Part shown: positions 27,589 to 63,949 of the stretch, in pieces | How the letters are laid out: every line of letters starts with the position of its first letter | Numbering within the stretch: the first letter of the stretch is position 1 | Source of the DNA: an uncultured Phycisphaerales bacterium | GTDB lineage: Bacteria; Planctomycetota; Phycisphaerae; Sedimentisphaerales; Anaerobacaceae | Reading direction: 5' to 3' | Assembly (NCBI GenBank): GCA_937927975.1 | Contig: CALEZT010000118.1 | Span: 30,756 to 94,755, forward strand | Length of the DNA stretch: 64,000 nt | Position numbers and translations under genes: made by a program | The notes under the pieces: model-generated | Databases searched by the model: none | What the model was told of the DNA's origin: nothing | Seen by the model: only the letters and a program-made list of their open reading frames with translations

Positions 27589-27656
27589 GCCCAGGCAGTT
27601 GGCGGCCGGGGTGTATCGCCGGCGGGTGCAGGGTGCGTTTTGTGCAAAGGGCGTGT

Positions 27657-28013
27657 ATGCGCGTGATTGCGACGACGACGTTTCTCTTGTGTTGCAGCAA
27701 TGTGTTCATGACGTTTGCCTGGTATGGGCATTTGAAGAACCTCTCGCACAGGCCCTGGATCCTGGCGGCCCTGGTCAGTTGGGGCATCGCGTTCTTCGAG
27801 TACATGATCCAGGTGCCCGCCAACCGGATCGGGCACGAGGCCCTCAACGTCGGCCAGCTCAAGATCCTCCAGGAGGTCATCACGCTGGCGATCTTCGTGC
27901 CGTTCTCGGTGCTGTACATGAAGGAGCCGCTCCGCTGGGATTACCTCTGGGCGGGTCTGTGCATCCTGGGAGCCGTGTTCTTCATCTTCCGAGAGAAACT
28001 GTTCGGCACCTGA
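27657..28013 (+). CDS. DUF486 small membrane protein
   Basis: 118 aa from ATG 27657, after AAAGGGC. Four hydrophobic segments. The conserved features are FMTFAWYGHLKN near the N-terminus, FFEYMIQVPANRIGHE in the middle and LKILQEVITLAIFVPFSVLYMKE-like residues later, as in DUF486 proteins, which belong to the drug/metabolite transporter superfamily. Transport substrate unknown. Length is normal for the family. Confidence 0.88.
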   Translation: MRVIATTTFLLCCSNVFMTFAWYGHLKNLSHRPWILAALVSWGIAFFEYMIQVPANRIGHEALNVGQLKILQEVITLAIFVPFSVLYMKEPLRWDYLWAGLCILGAVFFIFREKLFGT

Positions 28014-28156: not shown

Positions 28157-28438
28157 ATGGACGAACAGGTGCTTCTGCGGCGGGCGGAGGATGTCACGTA
28201 TCAGTCGCTCGGGCCGGGCGAGGATACGGTGATCCTGTGCCTGCGGACCGGACAGCTTCACACCTGCAACGAAACCACGCGGGCGTTCCTTGACGCGCTC
28301 GAACAGCCGCAGACGTTCGAGGCGGTGTTCGACCGTCTGTACGGCCAGTACGAGGTTTCGCCGGAGAAGCTCAAGGCCGACATGATGCATTTGCTGGAGA
28401 ACCTGATTCAAGAGGGAATCGTTGTCGCCGATGCGTGA
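28157..28438 (+). CDS. PqqD-like RiPP recognition element protein (lasso B1 type)
   Basis: 93 aa from ATG 28157 (GAGG 9 bases upstream; ATG 28148 is an alternative). The fold signature is clear: VILCLRTGQLHTCNETTRAFLDAL, split by a Cys/Asn turn, then FEAVFDRLYGQYEVSPEKLKAD-like residues and a final LIQEGIVVADA. Discrete PqqD-like proteins bind leader peptides of RiPPs, in lasso systems through the YxxP motif; all three precursors here have YxEP. Its TGA lies 8 bases inside the B2 gene, so the pair is translationally coupled. Role: hand the precursor to the modifying enzymes. Confidence 0.88.
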   Translation: MDEQVLLRRAEDVTYQSLGPGEDTVILCLRTGQLHTCNETTRAFLDALEQPQTFEAVFDRLYGQYEVSPEKLKADMMHLLENLIQEGIVVADA

Positions 28439-28991
28439 CCAGTCCGTTCCTGCCTCTGTCGTATCCGACGCGAATCCCTCGATTGGGAGGCTCGCCGGGG
28501 CGGTACTGGCGACCCACGTCACGTTCGTCGCGGCGGTCATCCCGCTGCTGGACAAGTTCCTGACTCTTGAACGCATGCTCCGATGGCTGACCCCCAGGCG
28601 ACCGTCGCGGCTGTACGAGGGGACGGACCTCGTTCTGATCAGCCGGATTGTGCATCGTCGTCTGCGAAGACCGATCCACATGCGCCGACGGGCGTGCCTG
28701 CGGCTCAGTCTCGTCATCTACCATTTCGCCCGTCTGGCCGGCGCGGAGGCGGTCTTTCACGTCGCGGTCTTTCCGCCCTCGACAGACCCCAAGCGTCTCC
28801 ACGCGCACAGTTGGGTGACGGTGGGGGGGGCCTGCCTGTGCGAGGCGCCCAAGGGGCAGTCGGCCGAGATCGTCCGCTACGGAAGGACATCGGCTCTTCC
28901 ATCGGGGCATGAGTCGATCGCGGAAGGGTTTCAAAGGCAACTGCAGAACTTGACGGATAGTGGGTGGACACATCGTGGCCCACGTGTATAA
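28431..28991 (+). CDS. Lasso-type B2 leader peptidase (transglutaminase-like)
   Basis: 186 aa from ATG 28431. An N-terminal hydrophobic stretch (LAGAVLATHVTFVAAVIPLL) and LTLERMLRWLTP lead to the transglutaminase-like core: RRRACLRLSLVIYHFARLAG supplies C89 and LHAHSWVTVGG supplies H126, as in McjB. Twelve residues after the His, where McjB has its third catalytic residue, stands E138 (CLCEAP) rather than Asp; this alignment is by eye. The protein would remove the leader from the precursors. Directly coupled to the PqqD-like gene, as B1-B2 pairs are. The stop codon TAA is part of the -10 box of the next promoter. Confidence 0.85.
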   Translation: MRDQSVPASVVSDANPSIGRLAGAVLATHVTFVAAVIPLLDKFLTLERMLRWLTPRRPSRLYEGTDLVLISRIVHRRLRRPIHMRRRACLRLSLVIYHFARLAGAEAVFHVAVFPPSTDPKRLHAHSWVTVGGACLCEAPKGQSAEIVRYGRTSALPSGHESIAEGFQRQLQNLTDSGWTHRGPRV

Positions 28992-28992
28992 T
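28965..28992 (+). promoter_or_regulatory. Promoter of precursor peptide 1
   Basis: TGGACA (28965-28970), 16 bases, TATAAT (28987-28992). The -10 overlaps the TAA stop of the B2 gene. The same elements with the same 16-base spacing precede precursor 3. Confidence 0.7.
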
Positions 28993-29039
28993 CGTCGGTC
29001 ATTGGTATCAGACTGCGGTGTATTGACAAGGAGACTGCA

Positions 29040-29174
29040 ATGAAAGACGAACGCAAGGGCAGCGAAGAGACGGCCAGGAAGGTCTATAGTGAGCCCACTT
29101 TGGAGAAAACGCAGAAGCTCCAGAACGTGACGGAAGGCCCTGTGCCGGTTGTCACGGGCGCTGTTGCGCCGTAA
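29040..29174 (+). CDS. RiPP precursor peptide 1
   Basis: 44 aa. AAGGAG precedes the ATG. The leader contains SEETARKVYSEPTLEKTQKL with the YxEPxLEK motif, then NVTEG and a C-terminal PVPVVTGAVAP. The YxxPxL motif and a Thr shortly before the presumed Gly1 are as in lasso leaders. If cleavage is before the Gly after TE, the core is GPVPVVTGAVAP, which has no Asp or Glu to close a lasso ring. It is the first of three paralogues and has its own promoter. Not detected by usual length cut-offs. Confidence 0.82.
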   Translation: MKDERKGSEETARKVYSEPTLEKTQKLQNVTEGPVPVVTGAVAP

Positions 29175-29279
29175 TCGAACGGTTGCCTCCGTGTGGTTGA
29201 TGATCGTGGCGCGCGACAGATGCCAGGGTCGTCTCCCGATGAGGCGGGTGTTCTCCAGGTTTCATGAATAGGAGACGAA

Positions 29280-29399
29280 ATGATGAGCGGCCAGGTGGAG
29301 AAGAAGACATACGTCGAGCCGGAGTTGAAGAAGGCCCAGACGCTGGAGGATGTCACCGAAGGCGGATTGCCGGTGGTGACCGGGGCCGTGCCGGAGTAG
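29280..29399 (+). CDS. RiPP precursor peptide 2
   Basis: 39 aa (38 from the second ATG, 29283, which is better spaced from AGGAG at 29270-29274). The leader KKTYVEPELKKAQTLEDVTE matches precursors 1 and 3 in YVEPxL and DVT; the C-terminus is GGLPVVTGAVPE. It lacks the SEET-type N-terminal segment of the other two. A possible core from Gly has Glu only at the last position, too far for a 7-9-residue ring. The 105 bases upstream show no strong promoter, so it may be read from the precursor 1 promoter. Confidence 0.8.
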   Translation: MMSGQVEKKTYVEPELKKAQTLEDVTEGGLPVVTGAVPE

Positions 29400-29671
29400 G
29401 AAGCAAGACAGTCGGAATTGTGGGTCGCCAGGCGGATCTTGTTCATCCTCGGCCGGATTCGTGTCAGGATCGCATCCGATTCGGTTGCTTCGTTTGGCCC
29501 GGTCCGGTGCGTGCTCCGGCCCTGCTTGGACGGCGGTTTGGGCGATCCTTTCAGCTTGCACTTTCGGTAAGGTCCAGAGCCTTCCGGCTGAAGCATTGAA
29601 TCGCTTCGCTCGTTCTGGAACGGCCCAAAGCGAGGGGGCGTTGCACGCCAATCCCACGCGGACGCCGGGTG
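29400..29671. other. Spacer between precursor 2 and the B2 fragment
   Basis: About 270 bases with no recognisable gene or clear hairpin. The short open frames here do not resemble any protein of the cluster. Confidence 0.4.
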
Positions 29672-29859
29672 TGGAAGCGGTCTTTCACGTCGCAGTGCTT
29701 CCGCCCTCGACAGACCCCAGATGTCTCCACGCACACAGTGGGGTGACGGTGGGGGACGTCTGTCTGTGCGATCCACCCCAGGGATCGGCGGCCGAGATGA
29801 TGCAATATGGGGCTGGACACCCGCGGAGGAACGCATATAATTCCTTCAAAGTTGTATGA
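29672..29859 (+). pseudogene. Duplicated fragment of the B2 peptidase gene
   Basis: From about 29672 the plus strand reads VEAVFHVAVLPPSTDPRCLH, then AHSGVTVGDVCLCDPP, closely matching residues ~106-140 of the B2 protein (AEAVFHVAVFPPSTDPKRLH…). The catalytic Cys segment is absent, and the Trp of HSWV is Gly here. After MMQYG about 70 bases are missing compared with the intact gene, and the copy joins the duplicated promoter. The residue at the third catalytic position is Asp here and Glu in the intact gene. It is not functional as a peptidase. Confidence 0.8.
29814..29841 (+). promoter_or_regulatory. Promoter of precursor peptide 3
   Basis: TGGACA (29814-29819), 16 bases, TATAAT (29836-29841). 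Identical boxes and spacing to the promoter of precursor 1, lying at the end of the duplicated B2 fragment, 46 bases before the ATG. Confidence 0.7.
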
Positions 29860-29887
29860 TCTGAACCTGTTGGTAAGGAGAAACCGA

Positions 29888-30022
29888 ATGAATCCAACGC
29901 ACAAGAGCACCGAAGAGACAGCCAAGAAGGTCTATGTCGAACCCATCCTGGAAAAGGCTCAGAAGCTCCAGGACGTAACGCAAGGCGAGGTGCCGGTTGT
30001 GACAGGGGCGGTGCCGGTCTAA
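29888..30022 (+). CDS. RiPP precursor peptide 3
   Basis: 44 aa. AAGGAG stands 7 bases before ATG 29888; the frame is open 27 codons upstream but through promoter and duplicated DNA. Leader KSTEETAKKVYVEPILEKAQ followed by KLQDVTQ; C-terminus GEVPVVTGAVPV. It is more like precursor 1 (same length, EET-A-KKVY) than precursor 2, in keeping with a duplication of the B2-tail/promoter/precursor unit. The only acidic core residue is Glu2. PVVTGAV is invariant in all three peptides. Confidence 0.82.
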   Translation: MNPTHKSTEETAKKVYVEPILEKAQKLQDVTQGEVPVVTGAVPV

Positions 30023-30067
30023 TCGGGCGGTGGCTCTCTGGGCAGAGCGAATATCTGCTGGGAAGTG

Positions 30068-30092
30068 AATGCCCGGGCCGGCCCCGGGCATT
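30068..30092 (+). terminator. Hairpin after the precursor genes
   Basis: AATGCCCGGG (30068-30077), 5-base loop, CCCGGGCATT (30083-30092), a perfect 10-bp GC-rich stem but with only a short T run. It lies between precursor 3 and the kinase gene, so it may give high precursor and lower enzyme expression by partial termination or mRNA stabilisation. Confidence 0.55.
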
Positions 30093-30138
30093 TGCATATT
30101 CTCTCCATCGTGGGCCAGGAAGGAAGATCATCGGGATC

Positions 30139-31140
30139 GTGGATTGTCTGTCGGATCACTTCACTATCGGCCGAATCTCCGTCAAAGTCACATCTGATTC
30201 CGCTCGATTGCTGGGGCCGGTGCAGGACGTCCTTCGCCCACGGAACCCCCTGGGCCATGAACACCCGTTTCATCTTCTTCTGCGGTATGGCTCAGAGCCC
30301 TCGGGCTGGAAGACCGACTCCCTGCGTCTGTTCTGGAGCGGCCTGCTTCGCGGGGACATCGCGAGCGAGCTTCACACAGACTCGACGGGTCGGGTGACGC
30401 GCGTTCCGGGGCGGGCCTGGGGCCGTTTGGATTTCGAACGCAGGACGATGGAAATCGTGTGTCGGCCGGGCCAGGAAGGCTGCGTCTACGACGGCTGCCT
30501 GATCCCCTTGCTGTGCGAACTCCTGGCGCACCTGGGGCATTTCGTGATTCACGGCGCATCTCTGGCGACGGACCGGCGGGGCGACAAGGCAGGGGTTCTC
30601 CTGGCCGGCGTCAGCGGAGCCGGCAAGACGACCACGTCGCTGGCCTTGGCCCATTCGGGAATGACCCTGCTGGCCGACGATATGAGCTTCATCGAAGCCT
30701 GCGATGCGAACGCCGACCGCGTGAAGCTCTGGGGCCTGCTGCTGACCTGCAAGGTCCACGACAACACCCGCCGGCTTTTGCCCTGGCTGCGAGAGTTCCC
30801 TGGTGGGCCGTCGCGAATGGAAGGGGAGACCTGCGTCGATGTGGTCGACGCGGTGGGGGATTCGGCCGGCGTGGTTGCGGACCCGCGTCTGCTGCTGTTG
30901 CTGGGACCTCGAACCCAGGGAAGTCACGTCCTAATGCCCTTGGACAAGACGCAGGCGATGACGACGCTGACTCGCGAGAACCTCCGCGCCTACGAGCATC
31001 GCGCTCAGGGGCCCGCGGGCAACGCGTTTCGCGCCATCGGGCGGCTCGTCGCCCAGTGCGACGTCTATCGTCTGTGCGTGGGCGAGCCGCTCTCGACCCT
31101 TGCCGACCGAATTGGCGGTCTTCTGGAGAGCCCGGCATGA
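30139..31140 (+). CDS. HPr-kinase-like RiPP kinase (lasso K type)
   Basis: 333 aa from GTG 30139 with GGAAGA upstream. The C-terminal half has the P-loop GVSGAGKTTT (157-166) followed by GMTLLADDMSFIE, the order found in HPr kinase/phosphorylase and in the lasso peptide kinases that phosphorylate a C-terminal Ser/Thr. The N-terminal half (~1-140) is a variable domain without recognised motif. Plausible target here: the invariant Thr of PVVTGAV, but this is inference. Its TGA overlaps the next ATG (ATGA). Confidence 0.8.
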   Translation: MDCLSDHFTIGRISVKVTSDSARLLGPVQDVLRPRNPLGHEHPFHLLLRYGSEPSGWKTDSLRLFWSGLLRGDIASELHTDSTGRVTRVPGRAWGRLDFERRTMEIVCRPGQEGCVYDGCLIPLLCELLAHLGHFVIHGASLATDRRGDKAGVLLAGVSGAGKTTTSLALAHSGMTLLADDMSFIEACDANADRVKLWGLLLTCKVHDNTRRLLPWLREFPGGPSRMEGETCVDVVDAVGDSAGVVADPRLLLLLGPRTQGSHVLMPLDKTQAMTTLTRENLRAYEHRAQGPAGNAFRAIGRLVAQCDVYRLCVGEPLSTLADRIGGLLESPA

Positions 31141-32162
31141 AAGTCGGCCTTTTACACGCATGGCTGCTCGCGCTGTCGGACCCGGATGGCCGACGGGAGG
31201 CTCCCTCGCAACCGTTGGAGGCTGCGCGTTGGGCGACCCTCTGGGAACGGGCGGACTATCACGGCGTGTTGTCGGCGGCGGTCGCCAACGCCAGGCGAAT
31301 TCTGACAACGCAGGGTGAGAGTCGGCTTGCCTCCATGGGAGCGTCGCTTGCCGGCGCGAGGGAACGCCTGATCGGCCGCGCGGCGCTGAGCATGGCGATC
31401 CGCTCGCAGATTCGTCAGATTGCCGACGAGTTCCAGACTCATGGCGTTGCCGCCGCGGTGCTCAAGGGGGCGGATTTCGCCGATCGGCTGTATCCCGATC
31501 CGTCGTTGCGGCCTTTCACGGACCTGGATTTGCTGGTGCCCGAGCAAAGGGTCGCGGAGGCAGAGGCAGCCATGTCTCGGCTGGGGTATACGCCGTGCGA
31601 GGCCTCGATGAAATACCACGGCGGGTACGGCGAGCGAAGCTGGGTCCGCACGGGGCGGCGGGAAGGCACCGTCGAGATCCATTGGAATCTCGTCAATTCT
31701 CCGACGATTCGCAGGGGGCTGAGCGTGGCGTGGGAGGACCTGGCGTTCGAGGAGGGCTCTGGGACGGACGACAGTCTCTGCCGACCGACGCCTGCGGCCC
31801 GCCTGCTGATCGCGGCTGTGCATGCAGCCGCCAGCCATGGATTCGACCGGCTCGGCCCTTTGTACGACGTTTGCCTGGCGGCCCGTCGGTGCGAGAGCCC
31901 GACCGACGGGCAATGGCTGGTTCAGGCGTCTCGACGCACGGGCGCCGAGCTGTCGCTGGCGGCTTCGTTGGCCCTGGCCCGGCGTCTGTTCGACGATCCT
32001 GCATGCTCTCGTCTCCAGGCGGCGATGCACCTGCCCCGTCGGGGGGCCTGGAGCCTTTTGTTGACGCCCGATGTGGTCCTGCGCGGCCACTGGCGTCTGG
32101 ATTCGCCACGACGACAGTTGTTTCGGGAGTTGCTCAAGAGACGATGCGGATCTTGCTCATAG
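31137..32162 (+). CDS. Nucleotidyltransferase-fold protein (NTP_transf_5 type)
   Basis: 341 aa starting at the ATGA overlap with the kinase gene; the frame is open far upstream, but only as a shadow of the kinase. The core is AAAVLKGADFADRLYPDPSL followed by RPFTDLDLLVPEQRVAEAE, giving the paired acids D129 and D131, and GTVEIHWNL later, as in the uncharacterised nucleotidyltransferases of lasso/PqqD clusters. It presumably transfers a nucleotide or sugar phosphate to the peptide or to the group added by the kinase. Target unknown. Confidence 0.8.
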   Translation: MKVGLLHAWLLALSDPDGRREAPSQPLEAARWATLWERADYHGVLSAAVANARRILTTQGESRLASMGASLAGARERLIGRAALSMAIRSQIRQIADEFQTHGVAAAVLKGADFADRLYPDPSLRPFTDLDLLVPEQRVAEAEAAMSRLGYTPCEASMKYHGGYGERSWVRTGRREGTVEIHWNLVNSPTIRRGLSVAWEDLAFEEGSGTDDSLCRPTPAARLLIAAVHAAASHGFDRLGPLYDVCLAARRCESPTDGQWLVQASRRTGAELSLAASLALARRLFDDPACSRLQAAMHLPRRGAWSLLLTPDVVLRGHWRLDSPRRQLFRELLKRRCGSCS

Positions 32163-33625
32163 TACCGGTTCCCCCGAGGACCAGTTGGCCCAAGGGGCTC
32201 TATCGCGATTGGATGTTCGACACGGAATTGGCGTGCGCCGCGACGACCTTGCGACGCGCCGGACACGACGTTCGGACGTTCCGACGGGAGGAGCAGCTTG
32301 TCAAGCTGGGGTTCGACTGGGACCGGGCCGAAGCCGATGTGCGGAATCTGATCGAGCAGTTTCGCCCGACTCTCGTCGTGCAGTCGGTCGTGACGCCCGC
32401 CATGCCGGAGGCGGCGCGGATCGCCCGGTGGGTCAAGGAGATCGCGGGAACCCACACGGTCAACGTGCTGTGCGGAACGCATCCTTCCGGCGTGCCGGAA
32501 CTTGTGTTGTCCGAGAGCGCGGACGTGGACGCGGTCGCGGTCGGCGAGTTCGAAGAGACTCTGCGGGACGTGGCGGACAAGGGACCCTCGCCTGAGGTCT
32601 CCGGACTCGTCGTGCGGCACGACGGCCGATTCGTCCGCACGCCGCAACGGCCCACGACGCACGATTTGGACACGCTTGGGCCGCCGGCATACGATCTGCT
32701 GGATATGGAGTTCCAGAAGCGGCGCAATCCCTGGATGATTCGCTATTTGAGCCTCTCCAGTCTCAACATCCGCACCTCGCGGGGTTGTCCCAACCGCTGC
32801 GCGTTTTGCGCCGAGCACCTGGTCGGGGGCCTGGGCGTTCGGTTCCATTCGCTCGATTACGTCATGCAGCAGGTGGGCTATGCCTGCGAGCAGGGCTTCG
32901 AGGCAGTGCACTTCGAGGACGAGACTTTCGCAGCGGACCCCGGTCGGCTGCTGGAGATCTGCGAGGCGATGCAGCAGCGCGGGTTCCACAAGAAACTCAA
33001 GTGGGATTGCCTGATGCGGGTGGATCAGGCTCAGCCGGAGTTGCTGGCGGCGATGAAGGCGGCCGGCTGCATTCAGATCGAGTACGGCTTCGAAAGCGGC
33101 TCGGACAGGGCCCTGCGAGGCGTGGGCAAGAACGCCACGGTCGAGCAGAACCGCAGGGCGGTGAGTCTGACGCGCCAGGCGGGGATCCGCATCTTTGCCG
33201 ACATCATGGTGGGCCTGCCCGGCGAGACACGCGAGGACCTGGACGCGACCGTGCGATTCCTCCGCTGGGCCAGGCCCGAGATCCTCAGCGCCGGCCGGCT
33301 GCTGCCGATGCCGGGGACCGCGATCTACAACCGACTGTCCGAGCACGTTCGGGCCTCCCTGTCGTGGGAAGGCTACAGCTACACGCCGCAGCCGGGTTTT
33401 GCGATCAACTTCACCGACGTGCCCGACGTCCAGTTCGAGCGGTGGTATCGCGACTTCTTCAAGTACATCGTCAAGCCGCACAACACGCTGGCTCTGCTGC
33501 GAGACACCGGTCTGACCGACGACAAGGCCCGCGGGGAATACCGCCGTACCCTGCGTCGTTTCGCCTGGCATCATCCGCTTCGGGCCCTGCGTCTACCCAT
33601 CCGGCGCGAAGCCTACTCGACATAG
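32144..33625 (+). CDS. B12-binding radical SAM enzyme
   Basis: 493 aa from ATG 32144, overlapping the nucleotidyltransferase gene by 19 bases. Residues ~1-140 form a cobalamin-binding Rossmann domain (MRILLIVPVPPRTSWPKGLY, later VDAVAVGEFEETL). The radical SAM core follows with C215-x3-C219-x2-C222 in SRGCPNRCAFC, IEYGFESGSD, and IMVGLPGETREDL. Class B relatives methylate unactivated carbons or rearrange them, and several act on RiPP precursors; others act on lipids or cofactors. Tight overlap with the cluster suggests peptide modification. No extra SPASM-type Cys cluster is seen. Confidence 0.88.
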   Translation: MRILLIVPVPPRTSWPKGLYRDWMFDTELACAATTLRRAGHDVRTFRREEQLVKLGFDWDRAEADVRNLIEQFRPTLVVQSVVTPAMPEAARIARWVKEIAGTHTVNVLCGTHPSGVPELVLSESADVDAVAVGEFEETLRDVADKGPSPEVSGLVVRHDGRFVRTPQRPTTHDLDTLGPPAYDLLDMEFQKRRNPWMIRYLSLSSLNIRTSRGCPNRCAFCAEHLVGGLGVRFHSLDYVMQQVGYACEQGFEAVHFEDETFAADPGRLLEICEAMQQRGFHKKLKWDCLMRVDQAQPELLAAMKAAGCIQIEYGFESGSDRALRGVGKNATVEQNRRAVSLTRQAGIRIFADIMVGLPGETREDLDATVRFLRWARPEILSAGRLLPMPGTAIYNRLSEHVRASLSWEGYSYTPQPGFAINFTDVPDVQFERWYRDFFKYIVKPHNTLALLRDTGLTDDKARGEYRRTLRRFAWHHPLRALRLPIRREAYST

Positions 33626-63468: not shown

Positions 63469-63498
63469 ACACGGATTCACACGGATGGACACGGATTT
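63469..63498. repeat. Three tandem 10-bp units (ACACGGATNN)
   Basis: ACACGGATTC, ACACGGATGG, ACACGGATTT follow one another directly after the Cmk-PlsC stop. Short dispersed repeat. Confidence 0.55.
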
Positions 63499-63506
63499 CG
63501 GGCTTT

Positions 63507-63533
63507 GTCATTCCCGCGAGGACGGGAATCCAG
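63507..63533. repeat. GTCATTCCCGCGA…CGGGAATCC hairpin repeat
   Basis: GTCATTCCCGCGAGGACGGG followed by AATCCAG, a stem ATTCCCG/CGGGAAT of a type common in many bacterial genomes. It lies 24 bases before the zeta-toxin-like gene. Confidence 0.6.
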
Positions 63534-63556
63534 TATCCTCAAGACGGTGCAGGACC

Positions 63557-63949
63557 ATGAAGATCGGCAAGAAAATCGTAATCATCGCCGGGCCCAATGG
63601 GGCAGGTAAGACGACCTTCGCCCGGGAGTTTCTGCCAAGAGAGGCTGACTGCCCGGACTTCGTCAACGTGGATCTGATTGCGGCGGGCTTGTCGCCATTC
63701 GATCCGGATCGGGCAGCGTTGCGGGCGGGGCGGATCATGCTTGAAGAAATCAAGCGACGTGTGCTTGCTGGTGAGAGTTTTGCCTTCGAGACAACGCTAT
63801 CCGGCCAGAACTATGCGAGGGCCATTCCCCGTTGGCGGGAGGCGGGCTACTACGTGAAACTGTTCTTCCTCAGCCTGCCCACTGCGGACTTGGCCGTCGC
63901 CAGGGTCGCGACGCGTGCAGCCCAGGGCGGGCATAACGTACCAGAATAA
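63557..63949 (+). CDS. Zeta-toxin-like P-loop kinase, 3' truncated
   Basis: 130 aa from ATG 63557. It begins KKIVIIAGPNGAGKTTFARE (Walker A), then FVNVDLIAAGLSPF, FAFETTLSGQNYARAI and VKLFFLSLPTADLAVARV, typical of zeta-toxin/AAA proteins. The family continues after RVxxGGHxVPE with a helical segment of ~60 residues; here TAA follows GGHNVPE at once and the next bases do not encode that segment in any frame seen. The gene is therefore truncated, perhaps by an insertion whose edge starts near 63950 (AGAAACTATCTCAAAAC). Probably inactive. Confidence 0.75.
   Translation: MKIGKKIVIIAGPNGAGKTTFAREFLPREADCPDFVNVDLIAAGLSPFDPDRAALRAGRIMLEEIKRRVLAGESFAFETTLSGQNYARAIPRWREAGYYVKLFFLSLPTADLAVARVATRAAQGGHNVPE

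What the first reader, a model, noticed from the sequence alone, without database searches (positions are those of the whole stretch)
28157..33625. Lasso-like RiPP locus without a lasso cyclase
The order PqqD-like protein, B2-type peptidase, three small peptides, HPr-like kinase, NTP_transf_5-type protein, B12 radical SAM is seen directly. The first two, the kinase and the nucleotidyltransferase match lasso peptide clusters of the paeninodin kind. The ring-forming asparagine-synthetase-like cyclase is missing: none is recognisable anywhere in the 64 kb. A radical SAM enzyme takes its place in the overlapping gene order. I infer a peptide product that is leader-cleaved and phosphorylated or otherwise decorated but not lassoed, and possibly C-modified by the radical SAM enzyme.
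Basis: partly seen in the sequence, partly recalled or inferred. Interest (0 to 1): 0.92.

Follow-up and report, generated by a model that had tools for sequence, protein, structure and literature searches.

The report
Cyclase-free lasso-like peptide gene cluster
A bacterial gene cluster carries most of the machinery for making knotted 'lasso' peptides but lacks the knot-tying enzyme beside it, and relatives in two bacterial phyla instead keep a kinase and a vitamin-B12 radical enzyme around very short conserved peptides, which suggests a distinct kind of linear, phosphorylated peptide product.

Summary
At 28157-33625 lie a PqqD-type recognition protein, a B2-type leader peptidase, three related 39-44 aa precursors, an HPrK-like kinase, an NTP_transf_5 protein and a B12-binding radical SAM enzyme. 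No cyclase-like ORF occurs in the window; its own genome is not held.

Seven other genomes (four Planctomycetota, three of the Pelobacter class) carry all or part of the set with the same radical SAM orthologue and no cyclase beside it. Strong kinase occurs in 7 and the radical SAM in 6 of 542 genomes, both in 5.

Precursors keep lasso leader spacing (Y-17, P-14, T-2). Predicted cores are short (median 12 aa); Ser/Thr stands at core 6-8 in 56 of 57, a lasso-type acceptor D/E at 7-9 in 13.

Best reading: a leader-cleaved, probably linear RiPP phosphorylated at that Ser/Thr, with unknown radical SAM chemistry. No product was observed. A cyclase-free phosphorylated family (LPP, Bacillota) was published in 2026 (PMC13381572); this differs in peptidase, core, phyla and radical SAM enzyme: a new variant of a known kind.

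The parts
28157..28438 (+). PqqD-type RiPP recognition element (B1-like)
   Evidence: PF05402 39.6 bits; nearest NCBIfam models lasso_PqqD at 30-31 bits, below their cut-offs of 70-80
28431..28991 (+). B2-type (transglutaminase-like, cysteine) leader peptidase
   Evidence: NF033537 38.8 bits over cut-off 33; PF13471; Cys89 and the His of H-x-W aligned in all 8 B2 rows
28965..28992 (+). promoter-like TGGACA-16-TATAAT before pep1
   Evidence: 5 promoter-like sites, 0.6 expected; exact pattern, chosen after seeing it, twice in 64 kb and 0 in 100 shuffles; also before the precursor of L001
29040..29174 (+). precursor peptide 1 (44 aa), predicted core GPVPVVTGAVAP
   Evidence: alignments A3/A5; cleavage site inferred from lasso leader spacing
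29280..29399 (+). precursor peptide 2 (39 aa), predicted core GGLPVVTGAVPE
29442..29666 (+). decayed copy of the kinase 5' end (two stops), left by tandem duplication
   Evidence: tblastn 48% over 75 aa, E 7e-18; blastn
29659..29811 (+). decayed copy of the B2 3' end, left by tandem duplication
   Evidence: tblastn 67% over 51 aa; 82-83% DNA identity to 28740-28870
29814..29841 (+). promoter-like TGGACA-16-TATAAT before pep3 (duplicated copy)
29888..30022 (+). precursor peptide 3 (44 aa), predicted core GEVPVVTGAVPV
30065..30095 (+). 13-bp hairpin between the precursors and the enzyme genes (possible attenuator, weak)
   Evidence: terminator-like sites are not above chance here (5 found, 4.1 expected) and the fold z-score is only -1.4
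30139..31140 (+). HPrK-like kinase (GTG start)
   Evidence: H138, G160, G162, K163, T164, D180, D181 invariant and G157 nearly so in 15 rows; profile matches to HPrK structures, E 3e-5
31137..32162 (+). NTP_transf_5 nucleotidyltransferase-fold protein
   Evidence: PF14907 123.7 bits; K110, G111, D129, D131, E180, H182 invariant in 8 rows; model pLDDT 87.5, nearest ANT(2'')-Ia, MenT1 and LnuA at E about 0.007-0.01, none at E<=0.001
32144..33625 (+). B12-binding radical SAM enzyme, CxxxCxxC from residue 215
   Evidence: PF04055 + PF02310; 45-85% identity to six relatives, Cys215/219/222 invariant; model (pLDDT 72) nearest TsrM, AprD4, MgmA, OxsB

Best explanation
A RiPP cassette that shares its front end with phosphorylated lasso-peptide pathways but makes a non-lasso product. 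Proposed steps: (1) the PqqD-type RRE binds the leader through YxxPxL (inferred from lasso and LPP precedent). (2) The HPrK-like kinase phosphorylates the conserved Ser/Thr at core position about 7, probably on the full-length precursor (inferred). (3) The NTP_transf_5 protein adds a sugar or nucleotidyl group to that phosphate, as reported for PsmN in pseudomycoidin (weak inference). (4) The B12 radical SAM enzyme modifies the short core, most likely by C-methylation near P-(V/I)-V-(S/T)-G (weak inference; rearrangement, or action on an attached sugar, is possible). (5) The B2 peptidase cuts two residues after leader Thr(-3+1), i.e. after the residue that follows T(-2), and releases a short peptide that stays linear for want of a cyclase. 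Gene content, order, conservation, catalytic residues and precursor motifs are shown; all chemistry is inferred.
For: The order PqqD-B2-precursors-kinase-NTase-radical SAM is read in L001, L002 and L042; L003 begins at the precursor (contig end); G441 (L046+L047), G154 (L099+L016) and G188 (L100+L067, kinase not seen, in the gap) show it split over two contigs. No Asn_synthase-like ORF in these or the other cassette loci, with the same profile finding L095 and L096 as positives. Class of G001: strong kinase in 4 of 298, radical SAM orthologue in 3 of 298, two genomes shared; class of G299: 3 of 244 each, the same three. Precursors: leader residue -2 is T in 52 of 63, V in 7, A in 4; S/T at core 6-8 in 56 of 57 distinct cores; D/E at 7-9 in 13 of 57; length 6-24, median 12. 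[ST]G stands at 6-8 in 51 of 57, as Ser in 26 and Thr in 25. Some cores end at the Ser (GNAPIVS, GAPPIVLS, GEPVVIS). Kinase motif residues and P-loop-to-DD spacing equal those given for BsfK. BsfK phosphorylates internal core Ser3, accepts Thr there, and is sped by B1. Control: L096 of the class of G001 has a cyclase-like gene (482 bits to the lasso cyclase model, cut-off 525) and a precursor with D9.
Against: No product, mass or activity is known. NCBIfam kinase, PqqD and radical SAM models are all matched below cut-off. The 61 database precursors, one of them the window's own pep3, were found with a profile that already holds the motif, so conservation in that set is partly ascertainment. 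13 of 57 cores do have D/E at 7-9; by eye 12 of them resemble three of the four G735 precursors. G136 and G301 have kinase cassettes without this radical SAM enzyme, and G220 only a fragment on another contig. Asn_synthase-type genes lie on other contigs of most carriers. MAG completeness is unknown. The third residue of a cysteine-peptidase triad is not obviously conserved in B2.
Confidence: 0.7

Rival explanations
1. A true lasso peptide cluster whose cyclase is encoded elsewhere in the genome and acts in trans.
For: Full-length Asn_synthase-type genes lie on other contigs of G001, G136, G154, G188, G220, G441 and G735, and a 128-residue piece of one in G299; the window's own genome cannot be searched; 13 of 57 cores have D/E at 7-9.
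Against: G300 and G301 give only matches of 26 bits or less to PF00733 and, with G299, none to the lasso cyclase model. The distant genes typed (G001, G136, G154) pass the cut-off for asparagine synthase and score best as that or as XrtA amidotransferase; those of the other genomes were not typed. 44 of 57 cores lack any acceptor at 7-9, and only 5 have one followed by four or more residues.
Confidence: 0.1
2. A branch of the LPP family (linear polyphosphorylated peptides) with a different leader peptidase, the radical SAM enzyme being an accessory. This overlaps with the best explanation.
For: Same core logic of RRE + HprK-like kinase + NTP transferase without cyclase; Thr at +15 from the leader Tyr and a hydrophobic residue at +11 in both (PMC13381572 sections 6, 7, 12; here Leu at +11 in 63 of 63).
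Against: LPP is reported as restricted to Bacillota, uses an SpI-like peptidase and MsbA-like transporter, has 35-200 aa precursors with variable C-termini and phosphorylates core Ser3 (S3T not phosphorylated). Here B2 is present, no transporter lies in the operon, the site would be S/T7 and the core is short and conserved. No LPP sequences were at hand for a tree.
Confidence: 0.25
3. A cofactor-like pathway (as PQQ or mycofactocin): PqqD plus radical SAM turn a short core into a small redox molecule.
For: PqqD plus radical SAM plus tiny conserved core; patchy but cross-phylum spread.
Against: Up to four differing precursors per genome (G735, G441), though G001 has one; Tyr in only 1 of 57 cores; kinase and NTase unexplained; B12-type rather than SPASM radical SAM enzyme.
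Confidence: 0.07
4. The radical SAM enzyme acts not on the peptide but on a sugar that the NTP_transf_5 protein puts on the phosphate. This overlaps with the best explanation.
For: Best NCBIfam match is HpnJ (163 bits of 578 needed) and the best PDB sequence match is AprD4, solved with its substrate paromamine; that HpnJ acts on a sugar-derived group is recalled. PsmN installs hexose on phospho-Ser (review passages).
Against: TsrM and MgmA, methyltransferases of amino-acid carbons, are equally close by fold; no sugar-supply gene lies between 28157 and 33625.
Confidence: 0.15

Closest known systems
LPP, linear polyphosphorylated peptides (Paenibacillus alginolyticus lpp; PMC13381572; outline and sections 6, 7, 12 read)
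   Same: Discrete RRE, HprK-like kinase, NTP transferase, no macrolactam cyclase, YxxP leader with Thr at +15, one to several precursors per cluster
   Different: B2 cysteine peptidase instead of SpI-like; no transporter in the operon; B12 radical SAM enzyme; short, mostly conserved cores; candidate site S/T7 rather than S3; Planctomycetota and the Pelobacter class rather than Bacillota
Paeninodin, pseudomycoidin and Bsf phosphorylated lasso peptides (PMC9266682 and PMC10368454, abstract and passages read)
   Same: B1, B2, HPrK-like kinase with the H-G-G-G-K-[S/T]-D-D motif, nucleotidyltransferase, leader Y-17/P-14/L-12/T-2
   Different: No cyclase beside the locus; no acceptor residue in most cores; no Gly at +9 from the leader Tyr (0 of 63; the Gly as lasso feature is recalled and seen in L096) and Leu at +11; radical SAM enzyme present
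Phospeptin (PMC9259500, passages read)
   Same: A poly-phosphorylated RiPP
   Different: By recall a LanM-like kinase pathway, not HPrK/PqqD/B2; different precursor
PQQ / mycofactocin (recalled)
   Same: PqqD-type RRE with a radical SAM enzyme and short precursor
   Different: Kinase, NTase and B2 peptidase; B12-type radical SAM; often several precursors

Membership tests
Lasso peptides | Asparagine-synthetase-like macrolactam cyclase in the cluster | tested here: not met
   None in window ORFs or in 16 loci of relatives, L095 and L096 being found as positives; several loci are cut by contig ends; own genome not held
Lasso peptides | Core with Asp/Glu at position 7-9 | tested here: not met
   13 of 57 distinct cores; 0 of the window's 3
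Lasso peptides | B1 RRE and B2 leader peptidase | tested here: met
   PF05402 and NF033537 over cut-off
Lasso peptides | Leader YxxPxL...T at -17, -14, -12, -2 | tested here: met
   Alignments A3/A5; T(-2) in 52 of 63, V in 7, A in 4
LPP | RRE + HprK-like kinase + NTP transferase, no cyclase | tested here: met
   against PMC13381572 section 6
LPP | SpI-like leader peptidase and MsbA-like transporter | tested here: not met
   B2 peptidase instead; no transporter among the eight genes; close neighbours are DMT_6, Dabb and S41 peptidase
LPP | Leader YxxPxVLxHQxIxFETxxS with phospho-acceptor Ser3 | tested here: not met
   Leader here YxxPxLxxxxxLxxVTxG; S/T at core 6-8
LPP | RRE in the LPP clade of the tree | not tested
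   No LPP sequences were at hand
Phosphorylated RiPP (any) | Kinase with intact catalytic residues | tested here: met
   against the motif
Phosphorylated RiPP (any) | Phosphate on the product | not testable with these tools
   needs expression and mass spectrometry
HPr-rel-A system (NCBIfam) | Kinase and PqqD over TIGR04352/TIGR04353 cut-offs | tested here: not met
   38.1 of 200 bits and 16.2 of 35 bits

The most novel reading that the evidence does not exclude
A separate RiPP class: a B12 radical SAM enzyme and an HPrK-like kinase work on the same conserved short core G-x-x-P-(V/I)-V-(S/T), giving a small C-modified (for example C-methylated) phosphopeptide, possibly capped on the phosphate by the nucleotidyltransferase-fold enzyme, in at least two phyla. 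The radical SAM enzyme, not a cyclase, is the class-defining enzyme.
Probability: 0.4. Interest if true: 0.8.

Novelty: new variant of a known kind. Interest (0 to 1): 0.62.

Why it matters
It would show that cyclase-free, phosphorylated relatives of lasso pathways are not a peculiarity of Bacillota, and that the lasso front end (RRE plus B2 peptidase) has been used with a B12 radical SAM enzyme for very short peptides. Genome-mining rules that require a cyclase, or that call any B1+B2+kinase locus a lasso cluster, would miss or misname it. Substrates with cores of about 7-16 residues make the enzymes unusually easy to test in vitro.

Tried and rejected
Own-genome search for the cyclase: not possible, no genome held.

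My first cyclase test (single-sequence phmmer) proved too insensitive: it missed an Asn_synthase gene beside the B2 gene of G098 (L095), which Pfam shows at 52.8 bits. I replaced it by a ten-sequence profile with leave-one-out control and by PF00733 searches of the carrier genomes. One search corrects what alone suggested: G299 has no match to the lasso cyclase model but does hold a piece of an Asn_synthase gene on another contig; for this I raised the trans-cyclase rival from 0.08 to 0.10. The NF033535 cut-off is not a sufficient test either: the control L096 stays below it (482 of 525 bits). On the G136 cassette contig PF00733 has one 21-bit match about 10 kb away, at the cut-off and over 121 model positions only; I take it for another ATP-pyrophosphatase-type gene, untested.

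Of 13 genomes of 298 with B2 over cut-off, six are cyclase-free cassettes (G001, G136, G154, G188, G220, G010), four have an Asn_synthase-like gene near (G067, G098, G140, G170) and three are undecided (G105, G130, G179; contig ends or weak match).

Weak kinase matches (L043, L044, L045, L048, L049, L050, L051, L052, L005, L006) were looked at in maps and left out of the family: they lack B2 or a like precursor, or sit beside glycosyltransferase or asparagine-synthase genes; L051 is told under noticed. L007 had no match to any window protein. A kinase tree separates the two cyclase-bearing rows L093 and L096 from the rest at 99/99 but leaves most cassette rows unresolved with long branches; I do not claim one clade. 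A link of the V-[ST]-G motif to the radical SAM enzyme is not clean: one G188 precursor lacks it and the radical-SAM-free G136 has V-S. Rfam scan of the window: nothing. PDB sequence search with the NTase profile: nothing at E<=0.1.


Full report
WHAT IS THERE. Pfam and NCBIfam give PqqD (PF05402), lasso B2 peptidase (NF033537, over cut-off), NTP_transf_5 (PF14907) and B12-binding plus radical SAM domains; the kinase matches HPr-kinase models only below cut-off but keeps H138, G157, G160, G162, K163, T164, D180 and D181, with the P-loop-to-DD spacing given for the lasso kinase BsfK (abstract and passages of PMC10368454). NTase residues K110, G111, D129, D131, E180 and H182 are invariant in eight rows; its model resembles ANT(2'')-Ia, MenT1 and LnuA nucleotidyltransferases only weakly (E about 0.007-0.01, none at E<=0.001). 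The radical SAM CxxxCxxC and B12 domain are present; its fair model (pLDDT 72) is nearest TsrM, AprD4, MgmA and OxsB.

THE PRECURSORS. Three peptides of 44, 39 and 44 aa share YxxPxLxxxxxLxxVTxG and a core with PVVTGAV. Counting back from the predicted core, Y is at -17, P at -14, L at -12 and T at -2, the lasso positions given in PMC10368454. Of 63 precursors none has Gly at +9 from that Tyr and all have Leu at +11; Gly at +9 is what I recall for lasso leaders and what the control L096 has. Each window precursor has a Shine-Dalgarno. Two have a TGGACA-16-TATAAT promoter-like site just upstream, seen first; the exact pattern occurs twice in 64 kb and in none of 100 shuffles, and L001 has it before its one precursor. 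Between precursors 2 and 3 lie decayed pieces of the kinase 5' end (29442-29666) and of the B2 3' end (29659-29811), so a precursor was gained by tandem duplication of a [B2 end - precursor - kinase start] unit.

NO CYCLASE BESIDE IT. A profile of ten Asn_synthase-type proteins finds each of them when left out (weakest 68 bits), finds nothing among the window's ORFs of 60 aa or more, and among 18 loci finds only the two positives L095 and L096, not the 16 of relatives; several of those 16 are cut short by contig ends. Genes from 22.8 to 39.9 kb of the window that were scanned belong to other families or to none. The window's genome is not held. In carrier genomes PF00733 finds full-length Asn_synthase-type genes on other contigs in G001, G136, G154, G188, G220, G441 and G735, a 128-residue piece in G299, and only matches of 26 bits or less in G300 and G301. 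None of 15 genomes searched has a match over the lasso-cyclase cut-off, the cyclase-bearing controls G140 and G067 included, so that cut-off proves little; G299, G300, G301 and G304 have no match at all. The distant genes of G001, G136 and G154 pass the asparagine synthase cut-off; the others were not typed.

RELATIVES. The cassette is found in a Phycisphaerae MAG (L001/G001, one precursor), Pelobacter sp. UBA5610 (L002/G299, two), a Desulfuromonadaceae MAG (L003/G300, contig begins at the precursor), G735 (L042, four), G441 (L046 + L047, three plus one between NTase and radical SAM), G154 (L099 + L016) and G188 (L100 + L067, kinase not seen). Related cassettes without the radical SAM enzyme alongside: G136 (L015), G220 (L017; a C-terminal fragment lies at the edge of another contig, L068), G301 of Rhizobiales (L004) and, weakly, G010 (L101). 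Kinase matches: 4 of 298 genomes of the class of G001 at E<=1e-20; 6 of 392 of its phylum and 6 of 244 of the class of G299 at E<=1e-15, of which two and three are strong. Radical SAM orthologues at E<=1e-90: 3 of 298 and 3 of 244. Over these 542 genomes strong kinase is in 7, radical SAM in 6, both in 5. G001, G299 and G300 were reached through the kinase, so their kinase presence is not independent.

THE CORE. A profile of 21 precursors drew 61 proteins from the large database, one being the window's pep3. With the window's peptides 1 and 2 that makes 63 precursors and 57 distinct predicted cores: length 6-24, median 12; S/T at position 6-8 in 56; D/E at 7-9 in 13, at 7-8 in 4; [ST]G at 6-8 in 51, Ser 26 and Thr 25. 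The database set was found with a motif-bearing profile, which inflates conservation; the Ser/Thr exchange and the cores that stop at that residue are not forced by it. [quoted passage not shown] The control locus L096/G140, with a cyclase-like gene, has a 19-aa core with D9.

HOW IT MOST LIKELY WORKS. The RRE binds the leader; the kinase phosphorylates the core Ser/Thr; the NTase-fold protein may cap the phosphate; the B12 radical SAM enzyme modifies the core; B2 releases a short linear peptide. The RRE, kinase and peptidase steps follow from lasso and LPP pathways (PMC9266682 passages, PMC10368454 abstract and passages, PMC13381572 sections 6, 7, 12). The NTase and radical SAM steps are weak inference: LppN gave no visible change in its heterologous host, PsmN adds hexose in pseudomycoidin.

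WHAT IS KNOWN. LPP (PMC13381572, 2026) is the closest described system and takes away the claim that a cyclase-free phosphorylated lasso relative is unheard of. This locus differs from it in peptidase, transporter, leader and site, and in having a radical SAM enzyme. The RRE-Finder authors noted that only about 4,000 of almost 8,000 discrete lasso-type RREs sit with a peptidase and cyclase, and that about 300 of the rest go with radical SAM enzymes (PMC7470986 passages); the passages seen do not describe this set. Searches of the open-access library showed no other paper on it, judged from titles and abstract starts of lists that were capped (20 of 89, 8 of 173); subscription papers are mostly not held. 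Verdict: observation confirmed, interpretation supported, a new variant of a known kind.

Noticed in passing
window 29442-29811: Decayed copies of the kinase 5' end and the B2 3' end between precursors 2 and 3, i.e. tandem duplication of the precursor unit with its promoter-like site.
   Followed up: yes
window 28965-28992 and 29814-29841; L001 1693-1720: Promoter-like sequence at the end of the peptidase gene or its remnant, directly before precursors, suggesting separate expression of the peptides.
   Followed up: partly
L051 2239-8912 (G388): PqqD, B2, NTP_transf_5 and HPrK-like kinase with a SPASM-type radical SAM gene beside PqqD and no Asn_synthase match: perhaps another cyclase-free variant with a different radical SAM enzyme.
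   Followed up: partly
L042 13419-17882: MacB-type permeases, ABC ATPase and HlyD-type fusion protein upstream of the G735 cassette: possible exporter, absent from the window's operon.
   Followed up: no
L004 1516-4655 (G301): Rhizobiales MAG with PqqD-B2-kinase-NTase, three tiny precursors (cores VPSSKQPV, VPSSKPVG, LTGSKVK), no Asn_synthase-like ORF in the locus and no close radical SAM orthologue: a further cyclase-free variant.
   Followed up: partly
L045 4007-11720 (G808): PqqD, HPrK-like kinase, NTP_transf_5-like, asparagine-synthase-like and a radical SAM-like gene in a row without a B2 match: a different use of the same parts.
   Followed up: no
window 27633-28013: DMT_6 (DUF486) membrane protein directly upstream, also upstream in L001; no match in L002 or L042, so probably only shared descent.
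   Followed up: partly
window 63485-63946: ORF with a P-loop (GPNGAGKTTFAREFL) near the window end, zeta-toxin-like by eye only (recalled motif).
   Followed up: no
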